NCBI RefSeq assembly: GCF_000411155.1
Contig: NZ_KE150266.1
Location: forward strand, 1,426,001-1,490,000
Length of the DNA stretch: 64,000 nt
DNA from: Gleimia europaea ACS-120-V-Col10b
GTDB lineage: Bacteria > Actinomycetota > Actinomycetes > Actinomycetales > Actinomycetaceae
Direction of reading: 5' to 3'
The position numbers and the translations under genes were made by a program. The notes beneath the pieces are model-generated. The model did not search any database. It had not been told where the DNA came from and saw only the letters and a list, made by a program, of their open reading frames with translations. Positions 7,929 through 44,638 of the stretch are shown here, in pieces (position 1 is the stretch's first letter; each line of letters starts with the position of its first letter).

Positions 7929-8363
7929 CTAGCAGTAATAGCGGTAAACATTGGTCTCACGTTGCTCAAAACCAACGCGGCGGTACAGGCGATTCGCGGC
8001 CTCGCGAGTGGGGCGCGACGTCAAATCAACAGTTTTCGCCCCAATCTTGTTCGCATACTTAACCGCTGCTTCCACCAGCTGGCGGCCAGCGCCCTGACCG
8101 CGCGTTTCCTCGGCCACCACGACGTCTTCAACCCAGGCGCGTGTGCCCGTTGGAATATCAAACACCACCAGCGTCAGCATGCCCAAAATGTTGTCCGGAT
8201 CATCATCTGGCGTGTACACAAACAGCGTTGTTGCGGGCTGTTCCAAAAAGCGCGTCACGTCCTGTTCGTTCATTGCAGTAGCGGACGATGAAAGCTGTGG
8301 CAGCAACTTGTTCATGCCGTCAACAACGGCCTTCGACGCCTCGTTCACAATCTTGATGGCCAT
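7929..8363 (-). CDS. GNAT-family N-acetyltransferase
   Basis: A 144-residue protein with a GNAT core. The strand VFDIPTGTRAWVEDVVVAEETRGQGAGRQLVEAAVKYA contains the acetyl-CoA pyrophosphate loop (R-G-Q-G-A-G). It is followed by the C-terminal strand VDLTSRPTREAANRLYRRVGFEQRETNVYRY, where the R-A-N-R-L-Y..GF pattern is standard. ATG at 8363 is preceded by AAGGGG. The acceptor substrate is unknown. It is the first gene of a likely two-gene unit with the M18 aminopeptidase. Confidence 0.9.
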   Translation of the reverse strand: MAIKIVNEASKAVVDGMNKLLPQLSSSATAMNEQDVTRFLEQPATTLFVYTPDDDPDNILGMLTLVVFDIPTGTRAWVEDVVVAEETRGQGAGRQLVEAAVKYANKIGAKTVDLTSRPTREAANRLYRRVGFEQRETNVYRYYC

Positions 8364-21591: not shown

Positions 21592-24186
21592 GTGGACAAT
21601 AAATTTACAACCAAGGCCCAAGAGGCGATCAGCGCAGCCGTGCAAACCGCTGGCGCTGCGGGCAATCCTTCAGTTGAGCCCATGCACTTGCTACATGCGT
21701 TGCTCGATCAGCCTGAAGGCATCGCGATTTCAGTTTTGGAGGCCGCAGGGGCTTCTCGCAAGGGTGTGGGACAGAAGGTCCGCGCCGCGCTAACCCAAAT
21801 GCCGTCAACCCAGGGTGCCTCGGTTTCGCAACCGGCTGCCTCGCGTGCGTTCGGCAATATTTTGGTGGAGGCGGAGTCGGATGCGCGCGCCATGGGGGAC
21901 GAGTACACCTCCACGGAGCACCTGCTCATCGCGCTCGCAAAATCCGACACGGATGCGGGCCGTATTTTGAACGAAGAGGACGCTAGTGCAAGCGCTTTGC
22001 AGTCAACACTATCTGCACTTAGGAAGGAGCCGATCACGACTGCTGACCCGGAGGGCTCATTTGAAGCTCTCAAGAAGTATGGGCGCGACCTAACGGAGGT
22101 TGCGCGCGAAGGCAAACTCGACCCTGTGATTGGGCGCGATGAGGAGATTCGCCGCGTCGTGCAGGTGCTTTCTCGCCGTACAAAAAACAATCCGGTTCTG
22201 ATTGGTGAGCCGGGCGTTGGTAAGACCGCAGTTGTAGAAGGTCTGGCGCAGCGGATTGTGGCCGGTGACGTGCCCGAATCGCTTCGTAACAAGAGGCTGA
22301 TCGCCCTTGACCTGTCCGCTATGGTTGCGGGCGCGAAGTATCGCGGTGAGTTCGAGGAACGCTTGAAGGCCGTTTTGAACGAGATCAAGTCGGCGAACGG
22401 TGAGATCATCACGTTCATTGACGAGCTCCACACCATGGTTGGTGCGGGCGGTGGCTCCGAAGGCGCGATGGATGCGGGCAATATGCTCAAGCCAATGCTT
22501 GCGCGTGGAGAGCTTCGCATGGTTGGCGCAACCACCCTCGACGAATACCGGGAGAACATCGAGAAGGATCCGGCGCTTGAGCGGCGTTTCCAGCAGGTGT
22601 TTGTAGGTGAACCTTCCGTGGATGACACGGTTGCGATTTTGCGCGGTATTGCGCCGAAGTACGAGGCCCACCACAAGGTGACCATCTCTGATGGCGCGCT
22701 CTTGGCAGCCGCGGAGCTGTCCAACCGCTATATCACGGGCCGGCAGTTGCCGGATAAGGCAATCGACCTTGTGGACGAGGCGGCGTCTCGCCTGCGCATG
22801 GAACTTGACTCATCTCCCACGGAGATCGACCAGCTTCGCCGCCAGGTGGACCGGCTTCGCATGGAGGAGTCCTACCTAACCGAATCCGATCCTGAGGGTG
22901 AGGATGAGCAGACCGCTACGCAGCTTGAGAAGGTTCGTGAGGAGCTTGCCGATCTTGGGGAGGAGCTTGCGGCACTCACCGCCAGGTGGGAGGCCGAGAA
23001 GGCCGGCCGCAACAAGGTTGGCGATCTGCGCGTGAAGCTCGATGAGCTTCGCACCGAGTTGGAACTCGCGATGCGTGAGGGCCGCTGGGAAGAAGCAGGA
23101 CGCCTGCAAAACGGTGACATTCCGCAGGTTGAGGCCCAGATTGCGAAGGCAGAGGAAGCTGAGGATCGCGCTGATGAGGGCGATCCGATGATCCCAGAGC
23201 GGGTTGGTCCTGCCGAGATCGCGGCCGTGGTTGAGGCGTGGACGGGAATCCCCACGGGCAGGTTGCTGCAGGGCGAAATGGAGAAGTTGCTTTCCATGGA
23301 GTCTTACATCGGTAAGCGCCTGATTGGGCAGGTGGACGCGGTTCGCGCCGTGTCTGACGCGGTGCGTCGTTCGCGCGCTGGTGTTTCCGACCCCAATCGC
23401 CCGACCGGCTCGTTCATGTTCCTGGGCCCCACGGGCGTGGGTAAGACGGAGCTTGCGCGGGCGCTCGCGGACTTCCTCTTCGATGACGAGCACGCGATGG
23501 TTCGCATCGACATGTCGGAGTATTCGGAGAAGCATTCGGTGTCGCGCCTGGTTGGCGCGCCTCCGGGATACGTGGGTTACGACGAGGGCGGCCAGTTGAC
23601 TGAGGCCGTGCGTCGCCGCCCCTACTCGGTGGTGCTGTTGGACGAGGTGGAGAAAGCTCATCCGGAGATTTTCAACATCTTGTTGCAGGTGCTTGACGAT
23701 GGCAGGTTGACGGATGGTCAGGGTCGTACGGTTGATTTCCGGAACACGATCTTGGTGCTTACCTCCAACCTCGGCTCGCAGTTCATGGTGGACTCTTCGA
23801 TGAGTGAGGACGAGCAGCGCGAGGCCGTGTTGAACACGGTTCGCGCGGCGTTCAAACCGGAGTTCTTGAACCGTCTGGATGAGATCTTGGTGTTCAAGGC
23901 GCTAACTAAAGAAGAGCTGTCGAAGATCGTTGACATTCAGGTTGATCAGATGGCTGGGCGTTTGCGCAGCCGTCGGATTGCCCTGCACGTTGATGATGAC
24001 GCGAGGACGTGGCTGGCCGAGCACGGGTATGATCCCGCGTTTGGTGCACGCCCGTTGCGTAGGTTGATTCAGCGTGAGATTGGAGACCGCTTGGCGCGCA
24101 TGATTATTGGAGGCGAGGTCCCGGACGGAGGTTCGGTAACCGTGAAGGTAAGCGGTGATGAGCTGAAGTTGGAGGCCAGCGCCTAA
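21592..24186 (+). CDS. clpB: Disaggregase ClpB
   Basis: An 864-residue AAA+ chaperone that resolubilises aggregates with DnaK. The Clp-N domain (two repeats, residues about 1-145) is followed by AAA-1 with Walker [14 protein letters not shown] and Walker [17 protein letters not shown]. The long M-domain coiled coil spans about 400-525, then AAA-2 has [11 protein letters not shown] and [13 protein letters not shown], ending with the small D2 domain. Start is GTG at 21592 with GAAAGGA nine bases before it. Its last ~90 codons recur in a diverged copy at 25822-26109. It is controlled by the HAIR element at 21512. Confidence 0.98.
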
Positions 24187-24194
24187 CCTGGACA

Positions 24195-24232
24195 AGTGAA
24201 GGGCTAGGAGGAAAACCTCCTAGCCCTTCACT
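24195..24232 (+). terminator. Strong terminator after clpB
   Basis: Perfect 17-bp arms (24195-24211 and 24216-24232; core AGGGCTAGGAGG / CCTCCTAGCCCT) with an AAAA loop, starting 9 bp past the clpB stop. It could also stop transcription arriving from the minus-strand cassette. Confidence 0.92.
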
Positions 24233-24251
24233 GTGTCTTCTGGCTTGCCGG

Positions 24252-24545
24252 CTAGCCTTGTTGCTGGTTTGGCTCCTTCTGTGGAGTTTCGCTGAATTTG
24301 GGTAGTGAACGCATGACAATGCCCGCAATGATGCAGATGGATACAACCGGCAGTAGCGTGAGTCCTTGAAGCTCGTTGGTAATGAACTGGAGTGTCGCCG
24401 CTAGTGGTCTGCTGAAAGTCTTTAGGCTGGGAGCAAATGCCAGGTGGGTGAGGGCAGACCTTGTGAATAGTGAAATCGCGTAAATAACCGCTGCGATTTG
24501 AAACAAGAAATTTGATAGGCGCGTAGGGTCAATTTTCTGTCGCAT
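24252..24545 (-). CDS. Small two-helix membrane protein of unknown function
   Basis: About 97 residues from ATG 24545 (MRQKIDPTRLSNFLFQIAAV). That start lies inside the last codons of the upstream gene (17-nt overlap) and is preceded by GGGGAG. Longer in-frame starts reach 24635 but lie wholly within the upstream gene. Two hydrophobic stretches, LSNFLFQIAAVIYAISLF (about 10-27) and LTLLPVVSICIIAGIVM (about 65-81), suggest a hairpin membrane protein with a hydrophilic Pro/Gln-rich tail. I do not recognise the family. It is the last gene of a three-gene minus-strand cassette placed between clpB and the clpB remnant. Confidence 0.6.
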   Translation of the reverse strand: MRQKIDPTRLSNFLFQIAAVIYAISLFTRSALTHLAFAPSLKTFSRPLAATLQFITNELQGLTLLPVVSICIIAGIVMRSLPKFSETPQKEPNQQQG

Positions 24546-25203
24546 TATCGAAGATCTCCCCACCATTCTGACAAAATGTGTTGAGTGATTCTGATTTATT
24601 GCCGAGCAGGGCTCTTGTAGCAAGAGAAGTCTCACGTAATGACGGATTTGTTCCGGGTTCGACGTCTCCGTAGTTTTCAGTGAGGAGCCGTAAGAACTCT
24701 GAAGATAAGTTTTGTGGTAGCTCCTCCCGGTGAAATATAAATGTGTAGACGAGTGCTTCGGCGTATTGTGCGCAAACGAGTGGCCCGTACGTGTCCCAGG
24801 CTTCGGAGGAGCGCGAAGGAACTGCCGCGAAGGACTTTGAACGAATGAGGCCAGAATCTATCAGCTCATTTTTCTTATCTTCATTCGCTATGATGTATGA
24901 ATCGTTGCTTTGCGAAATGTAAAGTGGGAAGTCTGTGGATGAAATCCATGAATCCATGGAAATGGAGAGTATGGTTGCGTCATTAGAAGTCCTATAAATA
25001 TATTCCAACTGTTCCGCATCGTTGTAACAGTCGTACCCGGTAATTTTTCCGGGCACTCCCAGATCGGAACGCACGTCTATCCTGTTGGTGCAGGCGACGT
25101 TTTTTGCAATTCTTTCAAGGTCAAGAATGCCGGATTCTGCTAATGCAAGGGATAGGACAACTAACGATAGACACAATAAGAATGCTACGCGATGTCTATG
25201 CAT
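24529..25203 (-). CDS. Exported protein of unknown function (accessory cassette, middle gene)
   Basis: A 224-residue protein. The first 23 residues, MHRHRVAFLLCLSLVVLSLA plus LAE, form a signal peptide or N-terminal anchor. The remainder is hydrophilic with four cysteines (VACTNR, YDCYND, LVCAQYAE, NTFCQNGG). No known catalytic motif or family is recognised. Codon use is more AT-rich than in neighbouring genes, with many ATT, AAT and TCA-type codons. ATG at 25203 lies 3 bp after the stop of the upstream cassette gene, and its own end overlaps the small membrane protein gene, so the three are surely one operon. Confidence 0.72.
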   Translation of the reverse strand: MHRHRVAFLLCLSLVVLSLALAESGILDLERIAKNVACTNRIDVRSDLGVPGKITGYDCYNDAEQLEYIYRTSNDATILSISMDSWISSTDFPLYISQSNDSYIIANEDKKNELIDSGLIRSKSFAAVPSRSSEAWDTYGPLVCAQYAEALVYTFIFHREELPQNLSSEFLRLLTENYGDVEPGTNPSLRETSLATRALLGNKSESLNTFCQNGGEIFDNATEN

Positions 25204-25206
25204 AGT

Positions 25207-25740
25207 TTATCGCCAGGCTACTGTTACACCGGCCGGTGGATTCATGGATCGAACTTTAACTTTCTTTACGGACATGATTTCGGAGCCATTGGGGCCATAC
25301 CAGGGCACCGTAAAGCTTCCTGATGTGGCAATGCCTCCGCCTCTCCACACTTCTCTATTATTTAGATATCCTCTGCCGATTACGTTTGCATTAGAGTTGG
25401 AAAACCATGCAGTGTTCCACGAGTATCCCAGTGTCATTTGGCTAACAGGAGCTTTTTTAACGACGTACCCAGTTCCATCTTGACAGGTTATCTGCACGCC
25501 TGCCGGAGCTGTGCAAAATCCGCCTCCTCTTGTCGCTCGAAGTGTTGTATCGGGGGTGAACGGATCGGTTGAGTAAACCTCAACATTTGTAAGTTCTACG
25601 TCTTCGTCAATGTGAACTGACATGCTTTGCAGATCGTTACCAATGATGAAATCGTCAGTGATATCTGAAAATGAGGGGAAATATGTAGAGATTAATGTAA
25701 GGGCTAAAGGTAGAGTTATTGAACGTGTCAGGAGATTCAT
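25207..25740 (-). CDS. Exported protein of unknown function (accessory cassette, first gene)
   Basis: About 177 residues from ATG 25740, with AAGGAGG seven bases before it; an in-frame ATG at 25779 has no such site. MNLLTRSITLPLALTLISTY is a signal peptide. The mature part looks like a beta-rich extracellular domain: SMSVHIDEDVELTNVEVYST, a GGGFC...ITCQDGTG cysteine pair probably forming a disulfide, and a C-terminal run with TSGSFTVPWYGPNGSE and VKVRSMNPPAGVTVAW. I do not recognise it. The pattern is reminiscent of small secreted bacteriocin-like or surface beta-sandwich proteins, but that is only an impression. First gene of the AT-richer cassette. Confidence 0.72.
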   Translation of the reverse strand: MNLLTRSITLPLALTLISTYFPSFSDITDDFIIGNDLQSMSVHIDEDVELTNVEVYSTDPFTPDTTLRATRGGGFCTAPAGVQITCQDGTGYVVKKAPVSQMTLGYSWNTAWFSNSNANVIGRGYLNNREVWRGGGIATSGSFTVPWYGPNGSEIMSVKKVKVRSMNPPAGVTVAWR

Positions 25741-25821
25741 ATTTCCTCCTTGAGCTTGTGTATCTGTCTTGCTAGTCAATGTAACACGCTATGATTTTTA
25801 TAACAATACATAAATCAGTGA

Positions 25822-26109
25822 CTGCAAACTGAAGATGAATTGTCGAAGATCGTTGACATTCAGGTTGATCAGATGGCACAGCGTTTGCGCAGCCGTCGCA
25901 TTGCCCTGCATGTTGATGATGATGCGAGGACGTGGCTGGCCGAGCACGGGTATGATCCCGCGTTTGGTGCACGCCCGCTGCGCAGGTTGATTCAGCGCGA
26001 GATTGGAGACCGCTTGGCCCGCATGATTATTGGAGGCGAGGTCCAGGACGGCGGCTCGGTAACCGTAAAGGTAAGCGGTGATGAGCTGAAGTTGGAGGCC
26101 AGCGCCTAA
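25822..26109 (+). pseudogene. Diverged 3'-end copy of clpB (remnant)
   Basis: From 25841 to the stop at 26107-26109, the sequence aligns without gaps to the true clpB end (23918-24186), with about 13 differences that are mostly silent third positions. Two amino-acid changes are visible in the body (MAGRL to [13 protein letters not shown] to GGEVQDGG). The similarity continues upstream as a more diverged, still in-frame stretch (TEDELSKIV against TKEELSKIV) until a TGA at 25819. No ribosome site or start of its own is convincing. It encodes only the small D2 domain, so it is probably not functional. The silent differences say it came from another clpB allele rather than from a recent local duplication. 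Confidence 0.85.
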
Positions 26110-26123
26110 TCTGAGCCCAAGGG

Positions 26124-26142
26124 GCTAGCTCAATGAGCTAGC
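26124..26142. terminator. Hairpin after the clpB remnant
   Basis: GCTAGCT (26124-26130), CAATG loop, AGCTAGC (26136-26142), 15 bp after the remnant's stop. It differs wholly from the terminator after intact clpB, which supports an origin from a different clpB locus. Confidence 0.5.
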
Positions 26143-26236
26143 ACCTCTATGCGTTTCTGTTTGTGCCGTGGTCGTGTTCTTTCAAGAATTAGGTGGTCGC
26201 CGTGGCATTGCTTTTGCGGCGTACTGAGTTCAAATG

Positions 26237-26260
26237 ACTTCGGCGTCGTCTTGCCGAGGT
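26237..26260 (-). terminator. Possible terminator of the AbiE operon
   Basis: ACTTCGGC (26237-26244) and GCCGAGGT (26253-26260) pair with one wobble, 9 bp past the AbiEii stop on the minus strand. No clear T run is present. Confidence 0.35.
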
Positions 26261-26268
26261 GCGGAATA

Positions 26269-27120
26269 TCAGCCGTGTTTTTCTAGAGTGGAAATAATCT
26301 CCCGAACCGTTTGGCAACACTCAAGTAGATCGATTCCTGAGGCGTAGGGATTTTTCTTTACATATCTTGTCCATATTGAAAACAGAAGCGTGTCTTCTTC
26401 GATCTCGTCGATGATGGAAAGCCAGTGAGATGGGTCCGTGGCGCTACCTCTATGTTTGCAGGTCGCTTCGATGGCGCTGTGGAGCAAGGCAAGGTCGCAT
26501 TTATTTCTGTTGAGTTTCCATAGGACGTGGACATCGTAGAAGTCGCGTGGTCGAGTGTTGGCAATCCCTCGCGCAATAATGGTTTCAAGCTTCTCCGCCA
26601 GTATCGTTTCGAGAGGATAGGCCATGAGGTGAATGCTACGGTCATCGAACAGAAGTTGATACTCGTACTCGATTGCTCTGGGGGTTATCTGGTCGCCGGT
26701 GGTGACATCAATGGTAAGTGGCACTGACATGGGCGCATACCGAGCTCTTAGGTGGACGCGGATGCCTGGGTAATCGTCGGTTTCCCTGATCTCTTCTGTG
26801 CGATCAAAATGAAAGGACCAGTTATCTTTCGTGTCAATAGACGCAATATCGTTAAAGATTCTTTTTGCGGAATCATGGGTGAGTGTAATCCCGGTGACCG
26901 TGGTGTCTAGATCAAGAGTGGTTCTTGATGCGACGCCCATAAGAGATGAAATGAGCATCCCTCCTTTGACAATCACGTGATTTCTCCAGGAGGAAAGAGC
27001 AAGGCGTTCCAGTAGTCTCTCCAGGACGTAATTCTGCATCATTGCCTGTGGAGGAATGCCGGCGGTTTTCGCAGCTTGTTTGATGTGCGATTTTAGTTGC
27101 ATCGCATTGCTTGTTCTCAT
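26269..27120 (-). CDS. AbiEii-type nucleotidyltransferase toxin (type IV toxin-antitoxin)
   Basis: A 283-residue DUF1814/AbiEii protein of the DNA polymerase-beta-like nucleotidyltransferase fold. Residues about 52-72 hold the GG signature and D-x-D metal site: KGGMLISSL, then TTLDLDT. A further acidic strand is VPLTIDVTTGD. The helical part contains LETILAEKLETIIARG followed by RDFYDVHVLW, the conserved K..T..R/RDFYD pattern. In this family the toxin blocks growth, for instance by tRNA modification in related enzymes, and gives phage abortive infection. The ATG overlaps the antitoxin stop (ATGA). It sits in the accessory region next to the clpB remnant. Confidence 0.92.
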   Translation of the reverse strand: MRTSNAMQLKSHIKQAAKTAGIPPQAMMQNYVLERLLERLALSSWRNHVIVKGGMLISSLMGVASRTTLDLDTTVTGITLTHDSAKRIFNDIASIDTKDNWSFHFDRTEEIRETDDYPGIRVHLRARYAPMSVPLTIDVTTGDQITPRAIEYEYQLLFDDRSIHLMAYPLETILAEKLETIIARGIANTRPRDFYDVHVLWKLNRNKCDLALLHSAIEATCKHRGSATDPSHWLSIIDEIEEDTLLFSIWTRYVKKNPYASGIDLLECCQTVREIISTLEKHG

Positions 27121-27701
27121 AGCAGAGCCTGCAAATAGGCTTTGATTTTGTTCTCTACGCCTAGGTGGCGTGCGTACTGCAGAAGCTTTGCAACGTCTCG
27201 GTCGCTTCGGCGCACATATGTCTGCATAGCCGGGGTGACTATTTGGACGTCAAGGATCTGCTGGCCTCGGACAAGGTCGCATAGCGTTCTTTCCAAGTCA
27301 TACGCTTTAACGGTATTTCCGTGCGATGTTATTACCTCGCATAGGCCGAGTTCGAGCACTTCGTCCGCGCATGTACGACAGGTGACGCCTGCATCTCTGG
27401 CAGGGGAGGCATTGTAACTGCGCGGAAATGTCATCGTTAATGAAAATGGAGCGCGGTCAGTCATATTGTGCAGAAAGAGTGCGGTATCGTCAGAGAAAAT
27501 GCCACGTGAGAATCGATGTTGTGTGGCAAGAAACTGGTCTTCCCAAATATCGGGAAGCGCGTAAAGGCCGCGCTCTACCCGTATTAGATCTCGAGTGCTG
27601 ACTGCTTCCGTGAGCTTTCGCCGGGGGATGCCTGCTTTCGTTGCTTGGCTAGAGGTGACATACCCGTTGCATTGTTTTGCTATGTCGAGAACAGTGCTCA
27701 T
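27117..27701 (-). CDS. AbiEi-type antitoxin / transcriptional autorepressor
   Basis: A 194-residue protein. The N-terminal winged HTH reads VTSSQATKAGIPRRKLTEAV and then RDLIRVERGLYALP (about residues 15-50), the standard AbiEi_4/DUF4095-like start. The C-terminal domain contains VKAYDLERTLCDLVR, typical of AbiEi antitoxins. In known AbiE systems the HTH binds inverted repeats in the operon's own promoter, and the C-terminal domain neutralises the toxin indirectly. A perfect inverted repeat lies 22-61 bp upstream. First gene of the two-gene operon; the ribosome site GGAGGGG precedes ATG 27701. Confidence 0.92.
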   Translation of the reverse strand: MSTVLDIAKQCNGYVTSSQATKAGIPRRKLTEAVSTRDLIRVERGLYALPDIWEDQFLATQHRFSRGIFSDDTALFLHNMTDRAPFSLTMTFPRSYNASPARDAGVTCRTCADEVLELGLCEVITSHGNTVKAYDLERTLCDLVRGQQILDVQIVTPAMQTYVRRSDRDVAKLLQYARHLGVENKIKAYLQALL

Positions 27702-27722
27702 TCACTTCCCCTCCTTTGCTGT

Positions 27723-27762
27723 ACTTTGGTGCTTAATAATATTCTAAATTAAGCACCAAAGT
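27723..27762. promoter_or_regulatory. Perfect inverted repeat in the AbiE promoter (autoregulatory operator)
   Basis: Arms ACTTTGGTGCTTAAT (27723-27737) and ATTAAGCACCAAAGT (27748-27762), identical over 15 bp with an AT-only-but-one 10-bp spacer. It occupies the place of the minus-strand promoter of the AbiE operon and begins 11 bp beyond the serine hydrolase stop. Known AbiEi antitoxins repress by binding inverted repeats here. It could also act as a terminator for the upstream gene. Confidence 0.75.
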
Positions 27763-27772
27763 AAACACCGCG

Positions 27773-28588
27773 TCAGACCATTTCGAGGAAGTGGTCGCCC
27801 AGGGCTTGCCAGTTCTTGCGGTGCCACGCGCCAAAGGGCTGCGTTCCGAGGAATGCCATGGAGCGCCCAGATTCTGGGTCTACCCAAAGGAACGAGCCGG
27901 ACTGGCCGAAGTGGCCAAACGTGGAAGCCGAGGCCGCGCGCGGGAACCAGGTGCGCACTTTCGCTCCTTTGATTTCAAAACCTAAACCCCACGTGTTGTC
28001 CGAATATCCGCCGTAACCGGGCGTGACGCCTTTCAAACCCGGGAAAGCAACAGAGGTTGCCTCTCGCGCCAACTCAGGCGATATGAGTGTGGGGTTTTGA
28101 AACTCACGGGCAAGGGCCACGAGGTCGCGGATGGATCCGGCCCCAGCGTATGCTGCGGATCCGTCGATGTGCGTCTCTATCAGACCGAGCGGCTCCAAAA
28201 CGGTTGCCTCAACCCAGTCCTCGAAAGTGAATCCCGTGGCTGCCTCGACCGCCCACGACGCTTCTTCAATACCGCGGTTCGAATAGATCCGCTTTTCCTC
28301 AATATCGGCCTCTAGCACAGGCTCGTTGAATGCGAGGCCGGAGGTGTGGGCAAGCAGGTGGCGTAGCGTCACAACCCGCTGGCCATCGGCAATAGTTACC
28401 TCATCATCGAGGCTGATCATGGCCCGCTGCACGGCAACAAGAACCCCCATTGCGGAAAGTAGCTTGGTGACCGACATGAGGGGGTAAACTAGCATGGAAT
28501 CGCCGTATTCGAGGACGCGGCCAGGCTCCATGAAAGCCATGGAATATTCGAATGGTGGCCGTAGATCTTCCGGTAGTCCGTCAGGCAT
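27773..28588 (-). CDS. Beta-lactamase/class C PBP-like serine hydrolase
   Basis: A 271-residue protein of the beta-lactamase-related (Pfam Beta-lactamase) group. The nucleophile motif SVTK is near residue 39 (PLMSVTKLLSAMG). LRHLLAHTSGLAF is the family's conserved segment, YSNRG supplies the Tyr-x-Asn motif, and HFGQSG the third element. No signal peptide is present, so a cytoplasmic esterase or peptidase is more likely than a true beta-lactamase. ATG 28588 follows AGGAGG. The gene is 9 bp after xthA and probably co-transcribed. Confidence 0.9.
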   Translation of the reverse strand: MPDGLPEDLRPPFEYSMAFMEPGRVLEYGDSMLVYPLMSVTKLLSAMGVLVAVQRAMISLDDEVTIADGQRVVTLRHLLAHTSGLAFNEPVLEADIEEKRIYSNRGIEEASWAVEAATGFTFEDWVEATVLEPLGLIETHIDGSAAYAGAGSIRDLVALAREFQNPTLISPELAREATSVAFPGLKGVTPGYGGYSDNTWGLGFEIKGAKVRTWFPRAASASTFGHFGQSGSFLWVDPESGRSMAFLGTQPFGAWHRKNWQALGDHFLEMV

Positions 28589-30186: not shown

Positions 30187-31373
30187 GTGCTTTGAACTCG
30201 CGGGCTTTAACTGTCGCCGCCTCGCTTCTGCTGGTTGTAACAACCGTTGTAGGCGTAGCGGGAGCATTCACGGGTGGGCACCCGGTTCTGGGCGTCATTT
30301 TAGGCGTCGCATTCATGGGCGCGTACGCGGCGGGAATCATGCTCGGACACCGCGCGCACGCCGGCTCTGACGATTTAGGGCAGGGTGTTTCACACGGGCG
30401 GTACACGATCGTGTGGATGCTGGTGCTCACTCTGATTTGGGTGGGCCTACTTGCCGTGTCAGATACGGCCATTTGGCTTGCGCTCGCGCTAGTAATCATC
30501 CAGGTGGGTGTGCTCGGGCCGGCGTGGGGATCGGCTGTTGCAGGCGTTACTGGCCTTATCGCGGTGGGTTTTTCGATTTCGCATCTGCCGCCAGATCATC
30601 CCGTTGGCGGCGCAATTTTGGGCCCTTTACTAGGGATTGGCATTGCCCTGGTAATCACGTGGGCGGCAGTAACCGTGATAACCGAGGCCGCCTCGCTACG
30701 CAAAGCGCTTCGTGAACTCAGCCAGGCGCGCACTCTCCTAGACCGGGCGGAAGAAGAACGCATTTTGCAGCGCGAACGAGCTCGCATGGCGGGCGAAATC
30801 CACGACACGGTTTCGCAAGATCTGTCCGGGGTGGCAATGCTTTTGCAGGTTGCGCAGACAAGCCGAGATCCGCAGGAGGTTGCCCGGCTCATCAATCAGT
30901 CTTTGCAGGCTACGCAGGCGGCGCTCGCGGATGCCCGGCGAGTAACGAAGGCGCTGGCTCCACGCGAGCTTTCCGCTGGGCGGCTCGAAGTCGCCCTCCG
31001 CAATCTCGCCACCGAACCTGTCCTCCGGGACTTGAACATCACTTTTGACATTGACGAGGGCGTGGCTGCGCTCAGCCTGGGGCAGGAGGCGGCGCTTCTT
31101 CGCGTGGCCAAATCCGCCCTCGTGAACGTGAAAGAACATTCGGGAACCATGGCTGCCGCCGTGCGCCTGAAAGAGGATCCCGATGGTGTGCGGCTTGAGG
31201 TTGAAGATAGTGGCCGCGGCTTTGACGCAGGCATGCCGCAAGAGGGGCGCGGTTTTGGTATTCCCGCTATGCGGGCGCGCATGAGTGAAGTGGGCGGCGC
31301 TCTCGAAATCCGTAGCGAGGCGGGAACACTTGTGCGCGCCACGGTTCCGATAAGTGAGGACGGGGCCGAGTGA
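30183..31373 (+). CDS. NarL-type sensor histidine kinase
   Basis: About 396 residues from GTG 30183, which overlaps the SDR stop; a longer in-frame opening inside the SDR gene is an artefact. Five or six membrane helices (about residues 8-160) lead into a HisKA_3 domain with the phospho-acceptor in ARMAGEIHDTVSQDLSG (His near 207). A GHKL ATPase with DSGRGFDAGMPQEGRGFGIPAMRARM follows. There is no obvious extracytoplasmic sensor loop, which suggests intramembrane sensing. The partner regulator follows with a four-base overlap. Confidence 0.94.
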   Translation: MSALNSRALTVAASLLLVVTTVVGVAGAFTGGHPVLGVILGVAFMGAYAAGIMLGHRAHAGSDDLGQGVSHGRYTIVWMLVLTLIWVGLLAVSDTAIWLALALVIIQVGVLGPAWGSAVAGVTGLIAVGFSISHLPPDHPVGGAILGPLLGIGIALVITWAAVTVITEAASLRKALRELSQARTLLDRAEEERILQRERARMAGEIHDTVSQDLSGVAMLLQVAQTSRDPQEVARLINQSLQATQAALADARRVTKALAPRELSAGRLEVALRNLATEPVLRDLNITFDIDEGVAALSLGQEAALLRVAKSALVNVKEHSGTMAAAVRLKEDPDGVRLEVEDSGRGFDAGMPQEGRGFGIPAMRARMSEVGGALEIRSEAGTLVRATVPISEDGAE

Positions 31374-31984
31374 AGGTCATAATTGTCGATGACCACGCGG
31401 TTGTGCGGATGGGACTACGCGCCGTTTTAGAAAACGCGGGCGGCATGAGCGTGGCTGCTGATTTTGCGCGAGCTGAGGACGCGATCAACTGGTTGCGCGC
31501 CCATCCGGTAGACCTCGTGATTATGGACCTGCGGTTCAAACAAACCGGCGCGATGGACGGCACCAGTGCCGTGCGCGCGATCAAACAGATGGGCGGGCCG
31601 CCCGTCCTGGTGGTCACTACATACGGGTCTGAACCGGAAATCTTGGGCGCTCTAGCTGCGGGGGCAGCCGGCTACGTCCTCAAAGATGCCGACACTGGGG
31701 AACTTCAACGCGCGGTTGTTGCGGCCGCGCACGGCGAACAGTTCCTTGGCTCCGGTGTGGAAGCGCAGATCAAACACCGTGGAATGCCGGAGCTTACGGG
31801 CCGGGAAATGGACGTGCTTCGCCTTGTGGCGCAAGGAAAGACCAATGCGGCCGTGGCAAAGGCCCTGTTTCTTTCTGAGGCCACCGTTAAAACTCACCTG
31901 AACCGCGTGTTTGAAAAGCTGGCTGTTAACTCACGCACCGCAGCCGTGGCAAAAGCAAGGTCTGTGGGTCTGCTAGAGGAGTAA
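31370..31984 (+). CDS. LuxR/NarL-family response regulator
   Basis: A 204-residue protein. The receiver domain begins VKVIIVDDHAVVRMGL, with the phospho-acceptor Asp in LVIMDLRF near residue 53 and the conserved Lys in YVLKDADTGEL. The LuxR HTH is LTGREMDVLRLVAQGKTNAAVAKALFLSEATVKTHLNRVFEKL. It starts with GTG, overlapping the kinase stop. The MFS exporter gene follows 83 bp later and is the obvious candidate target. Confidence 0.95.
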   Translation: MKVIIVDDHAVVRMGLRAVLENAGGMSVAADFARAEDAINWLRAHPVDLVIMDLRFKQTGAMDGTSAVRAIKQMGGPPVLVVTTYGSEPEILGALAAGAAGYVLKDADTGELQRAVVAAAHGEQFLGSGVEAQIKHRGMPELTGREMDVLRLVAQGKTNAAVAKALFLSEATVKTHLNRVFEKLAVNSRTAAVAKARSVGLLEE

Positions 31985-32027
31985 GGCAAATTCATCCTTT
32001 CGGTTGATGTGACCCGCGCTTTGCCTC

Positions 32028-32058
32028 AGCACTATGGAAGTAGAAACTTCGTAGTGTT
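32028..32058. promoter_or_regulatory. Imperfect dyad before the MFS exporter gene
   Basis: CACTATGGAAGT (32030-32041) and ACTTCGTAGTG (32046-32056) pair around AGAA with one mismatch and one bulge, immediately upstream of the GGAGG ribosome site. It could be an operator or a leader hairpin. Confidence 0.4.
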
Positions 32059-32067
32059 GGAGGAAAA

Positions 32068-33699
32068 GTGCAGGACGCACAAACGCTGGAGTTAAGCGGC
32101 AAAACGGAGGTAGCGCAGGCGCCCTCAAAACGCGATTGGGGTGCGCTGGCGGTGCTGGCAGCTTCGCTGGGCGTGATCGTGCTGGACGGCACGATTGTGG
32201 GCGTGGCGCTACCAAAAATAATTGGAGATCTAGAGCTGACGCTTGCAGACGCACAGTGGGTGAATAGTCTTTACGCGGTGATTGTGGGCGCGCTCCTTCT
32301 TGCAAGCGGCTCGGCGTCAGACCGGCTGGGACGGCGCAGGCTACTGGTGATAGGCATGATCATTTTTGTAGCGGGATCTGCAATCGCGGGTGTTGCCGGA
32401 TCGGCCGGTGCGCTCTTGGCGGGTCGCGCGGTGCAGGCAATTGGCGCAGCGGGCATAATGCCGGCAACGCTTTCAACTGTGAACGCCATATTTCGCGGCA
32501 AATATCGCGCGGCCGCGTTCGGCATTTGGGGCGCGGTAATCTCCGGCGCTGCGGCAATCGGCCCCCTGCTGGGCGGCGTGCTAACCGAGTGGGTTTCTTG
32601 GCGGTGGATTTTTTACGTGAATCTCCCCCTAGGCGTGCTACTAGTGCTCCTTGCCCTAAAAGTTGTTCCCCAAACTAGGGGCGAGGCCGGTGGACATTTC
32701 GATGTGTTGGGATTCTTACTTTCCAGCTTGGCGCTCGGCAGTCTCGTGTTTTCCATTATTGAGGGTCCGCACGTGGGGTGGTGGAAACCCACGGCAGGGT
32801 TCAACTTCCTCGGCCTCACGTGGACGGAGGCGTCTGCGATTTCCGTAGTGCCCGTTTCGCTGGCAATCGCGCTGGTCGCTCTGGCGCTGTTCATCTGGTG
32901 GGAACTACGCCTGGCTAAACGTGGTAGCAACCCTTTGTTGGATCTATCAATGTTCGCCATCGGCACGTTCTCGTGGGGAAACCTGACGGCCGCAACGGTC
33001 GCAATCGGCGAGTTCGCCCTCTTGTTCGTACTCCCGCTCTACCTCATCAACGCGTACGGAACCAGTGTGGTTGATGCCGGCCTGATCCTCGCAGCGATGG
33101 CCTTGGGTGCCTTCATATCTGGAGGCCTTGCCCGCCACATCGCGGCCAAGCTCGGCCCTGCGGGCACAGTCATTTTGGGTCTTGGCTTAGAACTCGCAGG
33201 AGTTGCCGCTCTTGCCTATTTTATGGATCCGGCTAAATCTTTGGTGTACCTCGTTGCCCCGCTCCTCGGGTACGGACTTGGCCTGGGTCTTGCTTCTGCA
33301 CAGCTGACCGGCACAATCTTGCGGGACGTCCCCGTCACGCAATCTGGACAAGGATCGGCAACCCAGTCCACCGTGCGCCAAGTAGGTTCGGCTCTTGGCA
33401 CCGCATTTTCGGGCGGGGCGCTCACGGTTGGGCTGAGCAGTTCCCTACCAAGCACACTTGTCTCGCTAGATTTACCGGATGGCCAGCTTAGCGACCTGAT
33501 CCGCGCTACGAAGGCTTCGGCGGGTTCAAACCTGTTGCAAATGCGCGAGCAGATGAGCGGCGATTCTGAGCTTTTGAACCACCTCGTCAATGGTTTTGCG
33601 CAGGCCACCCGTTCTTCCCTGTGGGTGTCCGCAACTTTCCTCGGCGTTGGCCTGTTGGGCTCTATCATGGTCTGGTTCGCGGCCCGAAAGCCAGATTAG
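32068..33699 (+). CDS. MFS drug:H+ antiporter, DHA2 (14-helix) family
   Basis: A 543-residue membrane protein with about 14 hydrophobic segments. The motif-A loop DRLGRRRLLVIG follows TM2, LDGTIVGVALPKI lies in TM1 (motif D1 of DHA2), and GRAVQAIGAAGIMPA is close to the family's motif-B region. This is the EmrB/QacA type of multidrug exporter. Start is GTG at 32068 with GGAGG five bases before. It follows a two-component system on the same strand, which may control it. Confidence 0.94.
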   Translation: MQDAQTLELSGKTEVAQAPSKRDWGALAVLAASLGVIVLDGTIVGVALPKIIGDLELTLADAQWVNSLYAVIVGALLLASGSASDRLGRRRLLVIGMIIFVAGSAIAGVAGSAGALLAGRAVQAIGAAGIMPATLSTVNAIFRGKYRAAAFGIWGAVISGAAAIGPLLGGVLTEWVSWRWIFYVNLPLGVLLVLLALKVVPQTRGEAGGHFDVLGFLLSSLALGSLVFSIIEGPHVGWWKPTAGFNFLGLTWTEASAISVVPVSLAIALVALALFIWWELRLAKRGSNPLLDLSMFAIGTFSWGNLTAATVAIGEFALLFVLPLYLINAYGTSVVDAGLILAAMALGAFISGGLARHIAAKLGPAGTVILGLGLELAGVAALAYFMDPAKSLVYLVAPLLGYGLGLGLASAQLTGTILRDVPVTQSGQGSATQSTVRQVGSALGTAFSGGALTVGLSSSLPSTLVSLDLPDGQLSDLIRATKASAGSNLLQMREQMSGDSELLNHLVNGFAQATRSSLWVSATFLGVGLLGSIMVWFAARKPD

Positions 33700-33741
33700 A
33701 AGGGCCCCGCTCCGCTCCACGCGCGAGAGCTGCGCTTCGGG

Positions 33742-35160
33742 CTAAACGGACTTCTCCGGGCCGGCCTCGTCCGTTAAGGCCGAGGCCGCCGCTTTCGTTC
33801 CGGGGTCATCTTCAACGACATTCCCGGCTTCCGCCCCTTCACAGTGGTTTTCGAGGGCGCTTTCTTCAAGTTCCACGTTGGTGATCTCTTCGAAGTCTAT
33901 TGTTGCCGGATGGTCGTAAGCCAGGCCCTCGTCCTCTAGTTCGTCTACGACTTGGAGCACGGAGCTGGTTTGCAGGTCCGAATTGTCTACCGGCGATTGT
34001 TCAATCGCTTCGGCAAGCTGGTCGGCATGCCCTTGGTGGAAACTCTTGTCTTTACGAAGGAGGCGGCGCAAAAGTTTGCGGATAGCCACGCGCCGTGCAA
34101 TCTCTTGGCGAATGTCCTCACGGCTACGCACCCAGTGCACTACGAGTAGCAGAATCAGAAGCATGCCCGCGTAACCGATTACGGGATACAAGTAGTTCAC
34201 AAACGTTTTGAACCCAACGAACGATACGGCGAAGCCAACCAGCGCCATTGAAATCAGCCAGATGCGGAAGCGTTTTGGGTCGCCCTTGGAGAACCTAGAG
34301 GCGAGGGCATAGTACATGCCTATCGCGGTGTTGAAGATCATGCCGAAAACTACGAATGCCATGACGGTGCCAAACGCGGGATGGATGCTGGTTAGCAACA
34401 TGAGCGTAGGCATATCGGAGTGGCCCACTTTGTCGATTTGCGCAAATAGGGCGGTGGAGGAGATGAGGATCAGCAGGCCGTAGATAATGCCGCCCAGCAT
34501 ACCGCCGCGTCCGGCCACGCGCGGGTCGCGAATCTGGCCTCCCATCACGATTGACATGGACACGGCCATGGCTAGTGATAGTGCCACGTAGTTTGCCGCA
34601 GAAACCCACCAGTTTGGCAGGGTTGACCCGATTTCGGTGGCCATGGCGTCCAGTTGCGTTATCGAGTAGTCCACGTGGGTGTGGGACCAAATTGCCGCGC
34701 CAACGATCAGCACGATGATGAGCGGCGTGATCGCTCCAATAATTGCAGTCACGCGGTCTACGTCCAACATTCCAACCAGGATGACGAGGACGGTGATGAT
34801 GACTGATCCTACCCAGACGGGTAGTCCGAATTGTTGGTTGAGGCTGGTACCTCCTCCGGCGATCATCACAAATCCCATGCTGAATAGCGTGAGTGTTATG
34901 AGGATGTCAAAGATGCGGGATGTGATGGGCGGGGAAACTTCTGTGAGCACGCGGTTGTGGTCGCTGGCCAGAAAGAAGGAGCCGAGTTGGAGGATCACAT
35001 ATCCGGCTAATGCGAGGATTATGAGCGCGAGGGCAACGCCCCATATTCCTTGGGTGCCAAATCCTACGAAGTATTGGATGAGTTCTTTCCCTGATGCGAA
35101 TCCCGCGCCTACGACTAGACCAACGAAGGCCATAGCAACGGTTATTATTTGCCGGTTCAT
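33742..35160 (-). CDS. YkvI-like membrane permease with a long acidic cytoplasmic tail
   Basis: About 472 residues from ATG 35160. Ten or more membrane helices begin ITVAMAFVGLVVGAGFASGKELIQYF, which is the start pattern of the YkvI group within the APC/SLC5-like permeases. Their substrate is not established. After the last helix (LLILLLVVHWVRS) comes a basic stretch and then about 100 acidic, probably disordered residues (EELEDEG..., FEEITNVELEES), a feature not usual in the family. An in-frame start at 35271 would add 37 hydrophilic residues but crowds the pyrE promoter. Neither start has a strong ribosome site. Confidence 0.85.
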   Translation of the reverse strand: MNRQIITVAMAFVGLVVGAGFASGKELIQYFVGFGTQGIWGVALALIILALAGYVILQLGSFFLASDHNRVLTEVSPPITSRIFDILITLTLFSMGFVMIAGGGTSLNQQFGLPVWVGSVIITVLVILVGMLDVDRVTAIIGAITPLIIVLIVGAAIWSHTHVDYSITQLDAMATEIGSTLPNWWVSAANYVALSLAMAVSMSIVMGGQIRDPRVAGRGGMLGGIIYGLLILISSTALFAQIDKVGHSDMPTLMLLTSIHPAFGTVMAFVVFGMIFNTAIGMYYALASRFSKGDPKRFRIWLISMALVGFAVSFVGFKTFVNYLYPVIGYAGMLLILLLVVHWVRSREDIRQEIARRVAIRKLLRRLLRKDKSFHQGHADQLAEAIEQSPVDNSDLQTSSVLQVVDELEDEGLAYDHPATIDFEEITNVELEESALENHCEGAEAGNVVEDDPGTKAAASALTDEAGPEKSV

Positions 35161-44391: not shown

Positions 44392-44638
44392 ATTTATTTC
44401 CTCCATCGGCAGGTACGTGCCGAACGATCCGTAGTGAAGAGGTGCTAACACCATTGCTAACACGGTTCCGTCTCTCCTATTGAGCCAGAACTAACTTGAC
44501 ACTAGCACAGCTAGAAGCAAATAAATAGGGACACTTCGTCATGATTTTACGTTATTGGGAACCGCGTTCCAGGTGCCGTGTTTCGTGGGCTCAGTGCGCC
44601 TCGTATATTCCGTTTGAATACGGGTAAAGTTGCCGGTG

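What the first reader, a model, noticed from the sequence alone, without database searches (positions are those of the whole stretch)
23908..26142. Diverged second copy of the clpB 3' end flanking an inserted gene cassette
The last ~270 bp of clpB (23918-24186) recur at 25841-26109 in the same orientation and frame. There are about 13 differences, mostly silent, and the copies have unrelated terminators. Between them lie three AT-richer minus-strand genes, and after the copy comes an AbiE toxin-antitoxin pair. A recent tandem duplication would be identical. The silent divergence points to DNA acquired from a relative together with its own clpB end, by integration or recombination at the clpB 3' end. 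The clpB 3' end may therefore be a recurrent landing site that keeps clpB intact.
Basis: partly seen in the sequence, partly recalled or inferred. Interest (0 to 1): 0.7.

Follow-up and report, generated by a model that had tools for sequence, protein, structure and literature searches.

The report
Imported gene cassette at clpB end
A small set of secreted-protein genes seems to have entered this bacterium's chromosome on DNA that also carried the end of another strain's clpB gene, so that clpB stayed whole and a second copy of its end was left on the far side of the new genes.

Summary
The repeat is real: 23901-24190 recurs at 25824-26113, 93.1% identical. Two close Gleimia relatives, L001 and L003, lack the insert; their single clpB end is followed by a stem-loop like the remnant's, then the next native gene. 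So the remnant's right half and stem-loop look native, and the last ~90 bp of the intact clpB with its terminator look foreign. At the 20 sites where the copies differ, L001 and L003 side mostly with the intact gene up to 24075 and with the remnant from 24096. One exchange at 24061-24095 with an incoming, perhaps circular, 1.9-kb DNA explains this; linear import with a later exchange is not excluded. The cargo is an unnamed three-gene operon (exported two-cysteine protein, four-cysteine partner, small membrane protein) with relatives in 7 of 213 family genomes. I found no second clpB case, but genome G151 has a similar event at clpC, its repeat starting at the same aligned codon, and one at a sugar-kinase gene. 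AbiE is probably separate.

The parts
21592..24186 (+). clpB, intact, probably a hybrid (native body, foreign 3' tip)
   Evidence: TIGR03346 chaperone_ClpB 1254 bits, cut-off 1232; allele pattern
23901..24190 (+). repeat copy A: the 3' end of the intact clpB
24061..24095 (+). inferred interval of the exchange, between the last site where both close relatives side with copy A (24060) and the first where both side with copy B (24096); 24075 is discordant
   Evidence: inference
24195..24232 (+). perfect 17-bp stem-loop, terminator-like, after the intact clpB; unlike that of L001/L003, so probably came with the cassette
24252..24545 (-). cassette gene 3: small protein with two hydrophobic stretches
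   Evidence: similar small proteins in 6 of 7 related loci, judged by eye
24529..25203 (-). cassette gene 2: 224 aa, N-terminal hydrophobic segment, four invariant cysteines; several relatives look like lipoproteins
25207..25740 (-). cassette gene 1: 177 aa, probably exported, conserved C-terminal domain with two invariant cysteines
25824..26113 (+). repeat copy B: displaced clpB 3' end (D2-small domain); right half native-looking
26120..26146 (+). native-looking stem-loop after the remnant, like that after the single clpB of L001 and L003
26269..27120 (-). AbiEii-type toxin gene (neighbour, probably a separate insertion or a retained module)
   Evidence: Pfam PF08843 2.4e-36; PADLOC 1.5e-98
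27117..27701 (-). AbiEi-type antitoxin gene
   Evidence: Pfam PF13338 1.2e-7; PADLOC 2.7e-65
27773..28588 (-). beta-lactamase-family gene: the next native gene after clpB in L001 and L003

Best explanation
DNA from a related bacterium, carrying the last ~290 bp of its clpB, its clpB terminator and a three-gene exported-protein operon, recombined with the resident clpB at its 3' end. The simplest form is one crossover, at 24061-24095, between the chromosome and a circle of about 1.92 kb. The functional clpB became a hybrid (native body, donor tip and terminator), the operon came to lie convergent to it, and the native clpB tip with its stem-loop was left on the far side as a remnant without the rest of the gene. 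Shown: the repeat, insert-free relatives, and a tip and terminator next to the cassette that differ from the relatives'. Inferred: direction (gain, not loss), a single event, the circle, and the cargo's role as an exported antagonistic protein with partner or immunity proteins. The confidence given is for the import; for the circular single crossover I hold about 0.45.
For: Empty sites in L001, L003, L002 and G007. Sites that differ between the copies: L001 sides with copy A at 13 of 14 up to 24075 and with copy B at 5 of 6 from 24096; L003 with A 9, B 4, neither 1, then B 6 of 6. Four-way count: left of the switch copy B has 8 private bases and A none; right of it A has 4 and B none. Right of 24095 copy B equals L003 at 91 of 91 and L001 at 88 of 91, copy A at 86 and 85. 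Low G+C of the insert. The cassette family is absent from G001-G003 and present in 7 of 213 family genomes. Parallel case: in G151 clpC the cassette-side tip resembles G172, the one of 8 compared relatives whose clpC is followed by a homologue of part of that insert, while 7 of 8 score better with the remnant.
Against: Only two relatives are close enough to assign alleles. Copy A left of the switch is unusually close to L001 (3 differences in 175 bp against 133 in 2309 upstream), so it could have been replaced later. Six more distant Gleimia genomes, summed, do not separate the copies on the left (A 29, B 33) and favour B on the right (A 6, B 16); one, L094, favours A on the right. No circular form, donor or recombinase gene was found. 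In G151 clpC the two copies are 99.3% identical, which fits a linear import better than a circle from a diverged donor. The 7 related cassettes elsewhere are not flanked by such repeats. Gain against loss rests on parsimony.
Confidence: 0.75

Rival explanations
1. Linear import: donor DNA (clpB end, terminator, cassette) recombined by homology within clpB at one end and was joined illegitimately, or by alternative pairing with a sister chromosome, at the other end, leaving a duplicated native end. Copy A left of 24076 was later replaced by L001-like DNA. This is a form of import and overlaps the best explanation.
For: Copy A left of the switch is unusually close to L001. In G151 clpC the copies are 99.3% identical apart from the tip. 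Such one-ended integration, and tandem duplication through alternative pairing during transformation, are described (PMC3240628, start of abstract in the listing; PMC3784515, abstract and passages).
Against: In the window it needs two events, and the later one must end at the same place where the foreign tip begins.
Confidence: 0.3
2. Site-specific integration by a recombinase, as with prophages in icd, where the incoming att site carries a replacement gene end; the recombinase acted in trans or has been lost.
For: The target gene stays whole and the duplicated block is long; blocks up to about 250 bp at internal gene sites are described (PMC10111431, passages). The clpB and clpC repeats start at the same aligned codon.
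Against: The ORFs of the insert include no recognisable recombinase. The copies are 93% alike, not an identity block.
Confidence: 0.1
3. The insert was ancestral and was lost in L001 and L003 by recombination between the repeats in the same interval, which would give the same allele pattern.
For: Integration and excision leave the same mosaic (inference). One arm of an inverted repeat in front of abiEi is kept in L001 and L003 although no AbiE gene is there, which hints that neighbouring DNA may have been lost.
Against: L002 and G007 also lack the insert, so several losses or a very old insert would be needed, while the remnant still has an open frame.
Confidence: 0.1
4. A local tandem duplication of the clpB end diverged in place and the genes were inserted later.
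For: Direct repeat in the same orientation.
Against: The differences are mostly silent and several match alleles of other species; the two copies have different stem-loops; the remnant's frame is open.
Confidence: 0.03

Closest known systems
Islands and prophages at icd-type sites inside protein genes
   Same: The incoming DNA brings a replacement 3' end, the gene stays functional, and the old end is displaced to the far side
   Different: No integrase in the 1.9-kb insert; 290 bp at 93% rather than an identity block; only three cargo genes
Homology-facilitated illegitimate recombination and transformation-made tandem duplications
   Same: Foreign DNA enters through homology on one side and can leave a duplicated resident segment
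   Different: In the window the two copies differ on both sides of an apparent switch point, which suggests a second homologous arm or a circle; natural transformation of Gleimia was not examined
Campbell-type single-crossover integration of a non-replicating circle (recalled)
   Same: Gives a hybrid gene, the whole circle as insert and the other hybrid as remnant, as seen here
   Different: No circle was found; such events are best known from laboratory constructs (recalled)
Small bacteriocin operons such as lactococcin 972 (recalled)
   Same: Small exported protein followed by genes for exported and membrane proteins; patchy distribution
   Different: No NCBIfam model, Pfam model at its cut-off or PDB sequence matched; activity untested

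Membership tests
Integrase-dependent island in a protein gene (icd type) | target gene restored by an incoming replacement end | tested here: met
   clpB is full length, and its tip and terminator differ from those of the close relatives
Integrase-dependent island in a protein gene (icd type) | element encodes its recombinase | tested here: not met
   no recombinase among the ORFs of the insert by Pfam or NCBIfam; action in trans not excluded
Integrase-dependent island in a protein gene (icd type) | defined core of strand exchange | tested here: inconclusive
   exchange bracketed to 35 bp only, from two close relatives
Homology-facilitated illegitimate recombination | homologous junction on one side, non-homologous junction on the other | tested here: inconclusive
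   left edge of the remnant is a non-homologous junction, but copy A and copy B differ left of the switch as well
Campbell-type integration of a circle | circular form of the insert | not tested
   no reads or strain at hand; no relative of the cassette in plasmids or viral contigs
AbiE toxin-antitoxin pair (neighbour) | adjacent AbiEi and AbiEii domains | tested here: met
   Pfam and PADLOC matches
Bacteriocin operon (cargo) | match to a named bacteriocin family | tested here: not met
   none for the 10 members of A1 in NCBIfam, none for genes 1-3 in NCBIfam, none above a Pfam cut-off; PHROGs was not searched
Bacteriocin operon (cargo) | antibacterial activity with specific immunity | not testable with these tools
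   needs the bench

The most novel reading that the evidence does not exclude
Actinomycetaceae exchange small exported-protein cassettes that have no recombinase of their own and travel on DNA bearing the end of a housekeeping gene (clpB, clpC, a sugar-kinase gene) as a landing arm. Host recombination inserts them, repairs the gene with the donor end and leaves the native end behind. The start of the D2-small domain of clp genes is a preferred breakpoint.
Probability: 0.25. Interest if true: 0.7.

Novelty: new variant of a known kind. Interest (0 to 1): 0.5.

Why it matters
It gives a readable footprint (hybrid functional gene, foreign terminator, displaced native end) of how gene cassettes without a recombinase can enter a core-gene neighbourhood without damage, with further loci in the same family to compare. 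It also brings up a three-gene exported-protein operon of Actinomycetaceae that no library searched here names, that looks like an antagonism module, and that can be tested directly.

Tried and rejected
The window's own genome is not held. Mobile form or donor: no relatives of gene 2 or of the gene 1 family in viral contigs, none of gene 1 in plasmids, no phage DNA match to 23900-27750; the three plasmid matches to that stretch were a clpB and AbiE-like stretches. clp ends in phage and plasmid collections: 20 of 128, 60 of 67 and 30 of 1658 records were shown; annotated ones are named as Clp proteins, the rest were not checked for orphan ends. 10 of 10 viral-contig hits lie in open frames of 412 aa or more.

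The 7 related cassettes in the family are not flanked by gene-end repeats within the 9.5 to 19 kb fetched around each, so the cassette does not always move this way. The G151 clpC cargo had no relative in the other 212 family genomes, though DNA comparison found a partial homologue in G172.

In one search, 9 of 213 genomes had three matches (counted by eye); these 9 and three others were re-searched. In one search, 61 of 396 order genomes had three or more (counted by eye), with at most 13 candidates scored per genome; 49 of the 61 were re-searched in full and 12 were not. Among the 49, the short frame in G287 is a gene cut by a contig end, and G306 has an offset repeat within clpB; neither shows a cassette. 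The order search for the cassette scored at most 8 candidates per genome. The G151 repeat scan covered 1.2 of 2.63 Mb and listed 36 pairs, many of them gene-family repeats; I looked at the genes of six regions besides clpC. One search read three loci on the wrong strand and was redone; its rows for those three were dropped. For the clpC tip I aligned 8 of the 35 genus genomes.

Papers: searches for clp landing sites listed 2 papers and 10 of 83; the one opened, PMC10945833 (passages), has ICEs in a tRNA-Lys gene near clpB, a different thing. The library holds open-licence papers only.
Full report
THE OBSERVATION. The repeat is in exact register: 23901-24190 and 25824-26113, 290 bp, no gaps, 20 differences. 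It is the only direct repeat longer than 60 bp that the window's self-comparison reported. The second copy has an open frame of 89 codons that matches the ClpB_D2-small domain. The differences are mostly silent. The insert has 46.2% G+C against 60.0% for clpB.

EMPTY SITES. A search with the downstream beta-lactamase-like protein kept 79 loci; L001 (Gleimia europaea UMB0652) and L003 (Actinomyces urinae Marseille-P2225) are close relatives (96 and 95% in that protein), L002 a more distant one (75%). In L001 and L003 the stretch that aligns with the window up to 24190 is followed about 55 bases later by the stretch that aligns with window 27731 onward; window 25827-26154 (25828 for L003), remnant and stem-loop, aligns with their only clpB end. 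In L002 the two alignments are 0.3 kb apart; in G007 the end of the next gene can be recognised by eye about 60 bp after clpB. So 4 of 4 Gleimia genomes in which I could see clpB beside this gene lack the insert. In the genus 9 of 11 genomes gave a DNA match to the clpB end, one each except for a weak second match in G009.

WHICH PART IS FOREIGN. At the 20 sites where the copies differ, L001 matches copy A at 13 of 14 up to 24075 and copy B at 5 of 6 from 24096; L003 matches A 9, B 4, neither 1, then B 6 of 6. Right of 24095 copy B equals L003 at 91 of 91 bases and L001 at 88, copy A only 86 and 85. The stem-loop after the remnant is like the relatives'; the one after the intact gene is not, though by eye it resembles a stem-loop downstream of clpB in L002. 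In a four-way count, left of the switch B carries 8 private bases and A none; right of it A carries 4 and B none. One foreign clpB end cut in two by one exchange at 24061-24095 explains this. Cautions: only two relatives are close enough; copy A left of the switch differs from L001 at 3 of 175 sites while the rest of clpB differs at 133 of 2309, so a later exchange could have made it look as it does; six more distant Gleimia genomes sum to A 29, B 33 on the left and A 6, B 16 on the right. Loss of an ancestral insert would leave the same pattern; its absence from L002 and G007 speaks against that.

THE CARGO. Gene 1 (177 aa) has 9 relatives besides its own entry in the protein database. Their profile matches 7 of 213 family genomes, and a wider profile matches 1 of 396 genomes of an order sample, with candidates capped. 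In 7 of 7 family loci the next gene resembles gene 2, and in 6 of 7 a small hydrophobic protein like gene 3 follows (judged by alignment and by eye). Gene 1 has two invariant cysteines in 15 aligned proteins; its C-terminal 109 residues hold 11 K+R and 3 D+E and are modelled mainly as beta strands at low to moderate confidence (pLDDT 62, pTM 0.52), with no clear structural match. That it is exported is read from its N terminus and those of its relatives by eye; the hydropathy peak of the window's own copy is modest. Gene 2 has four invariant cysteines in 9 aligned proteins, and one relative is named Lipoprotein in a database. Pfam, NCBIfam and PADLOC named none of the three. An exported antagonistic protein with partner or immunity proteins is my inference from the layout, not shown.

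IS IT RECURRENT? The remnant protein matched 212 of 213 family genomes, most of them twice (ClpB and ClpC, by inference); of the 9 with three matches one, G151, has an orphan clp end. There clpC (L174 3151-5622) has its last 288 bp repeated at 7965-8252, 99.3% identical, around a 2.35-kb insert of 52.9% G+C in a stretch averaging 67.1%, with a minus-strand exported-looking protein and a 409-aa partner. Both duplications start at the same aligned codon, at the beginning of the D2-small domain. By my own rough estimate so close an agreement has a chance of about one percent if breakpoints are uniform over a kilobase or so; with two cases it is a lead, not proof. Of 8 clpC relatives aligned, 7 score better with the remnant's end, by 3 to 18 bits; the exception, G172, is the one whose clpC is followed by a 77.8% homologue of part of the G151 insert, and it has no remnant. 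So there too the cassette goes with the donor's gene tip. The same genome has a 385-bp second copy, 98.4% identical, of the 5' end of a gene that I take for a pfkB-type sugar kinase (from its sequence, recalled), around a 4.8-kb insert with a 927-aa protein without a Pfam match. G146 has the uninterrupted order, and a second copy of that insert with pieces of the kinase gene at both ends lies elsewhere in G151. The process is therefore not special to clp genes, and these data do not make clpB a hotspot. In the order sample, 49 of 61 genomes with extra matches were re-searched without a further case.

MECHANISM. A circle with one crossover is the shortest account of the window; a linear import with one homologous end fits G151 clpC better. 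No integrase is encoded in the insert. Papers: PMC3784515 (abstract and passages), PMC10111431 and PMC10945833 (passages), PMC3240628 (start of the abstract in the listing).

VERDICT. A new variant of known recombination footprints, with a cargo that no library searched here names.

Noticed in passing
27722-27763: Inverted repeat of two 16-bp arms just upstream of abiEi, perhaps its operator; the right arm is kept in L001 and L003 although their AbiE genes are missing, which hints at a lost AbiE module or an older native element.
   Followed up: partly
26155-27720: The AbiE pair sits exactly between the native-looking stem-loop and the next native gene, a second difference from L001 and L003 at the same spot.
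   Followed up: partly
   Followed up: yes
L229 13567-19144 and L282 6355-11655: In G151 a sugar-kinase 5' end is duplicated around a 4.8-kb insert, and a 95.5% copy of insert plus kinase pieces lies 1.3 Mb away; G146 (L283) shows the uninterrupted order.
   Followed up: partly
L113 (G032 contig C6): Two ClpB-like genes of 910 and 978 codons lie about 7 kb apart in one genome.
   Followed up: no
30230-33851: About 3.4 kb of the window is missing from L003 but present in L001.
   Followed up: no
44392-44450: msiK RNA motif on the minus strand, 60.4 bits.
   Followed up: no
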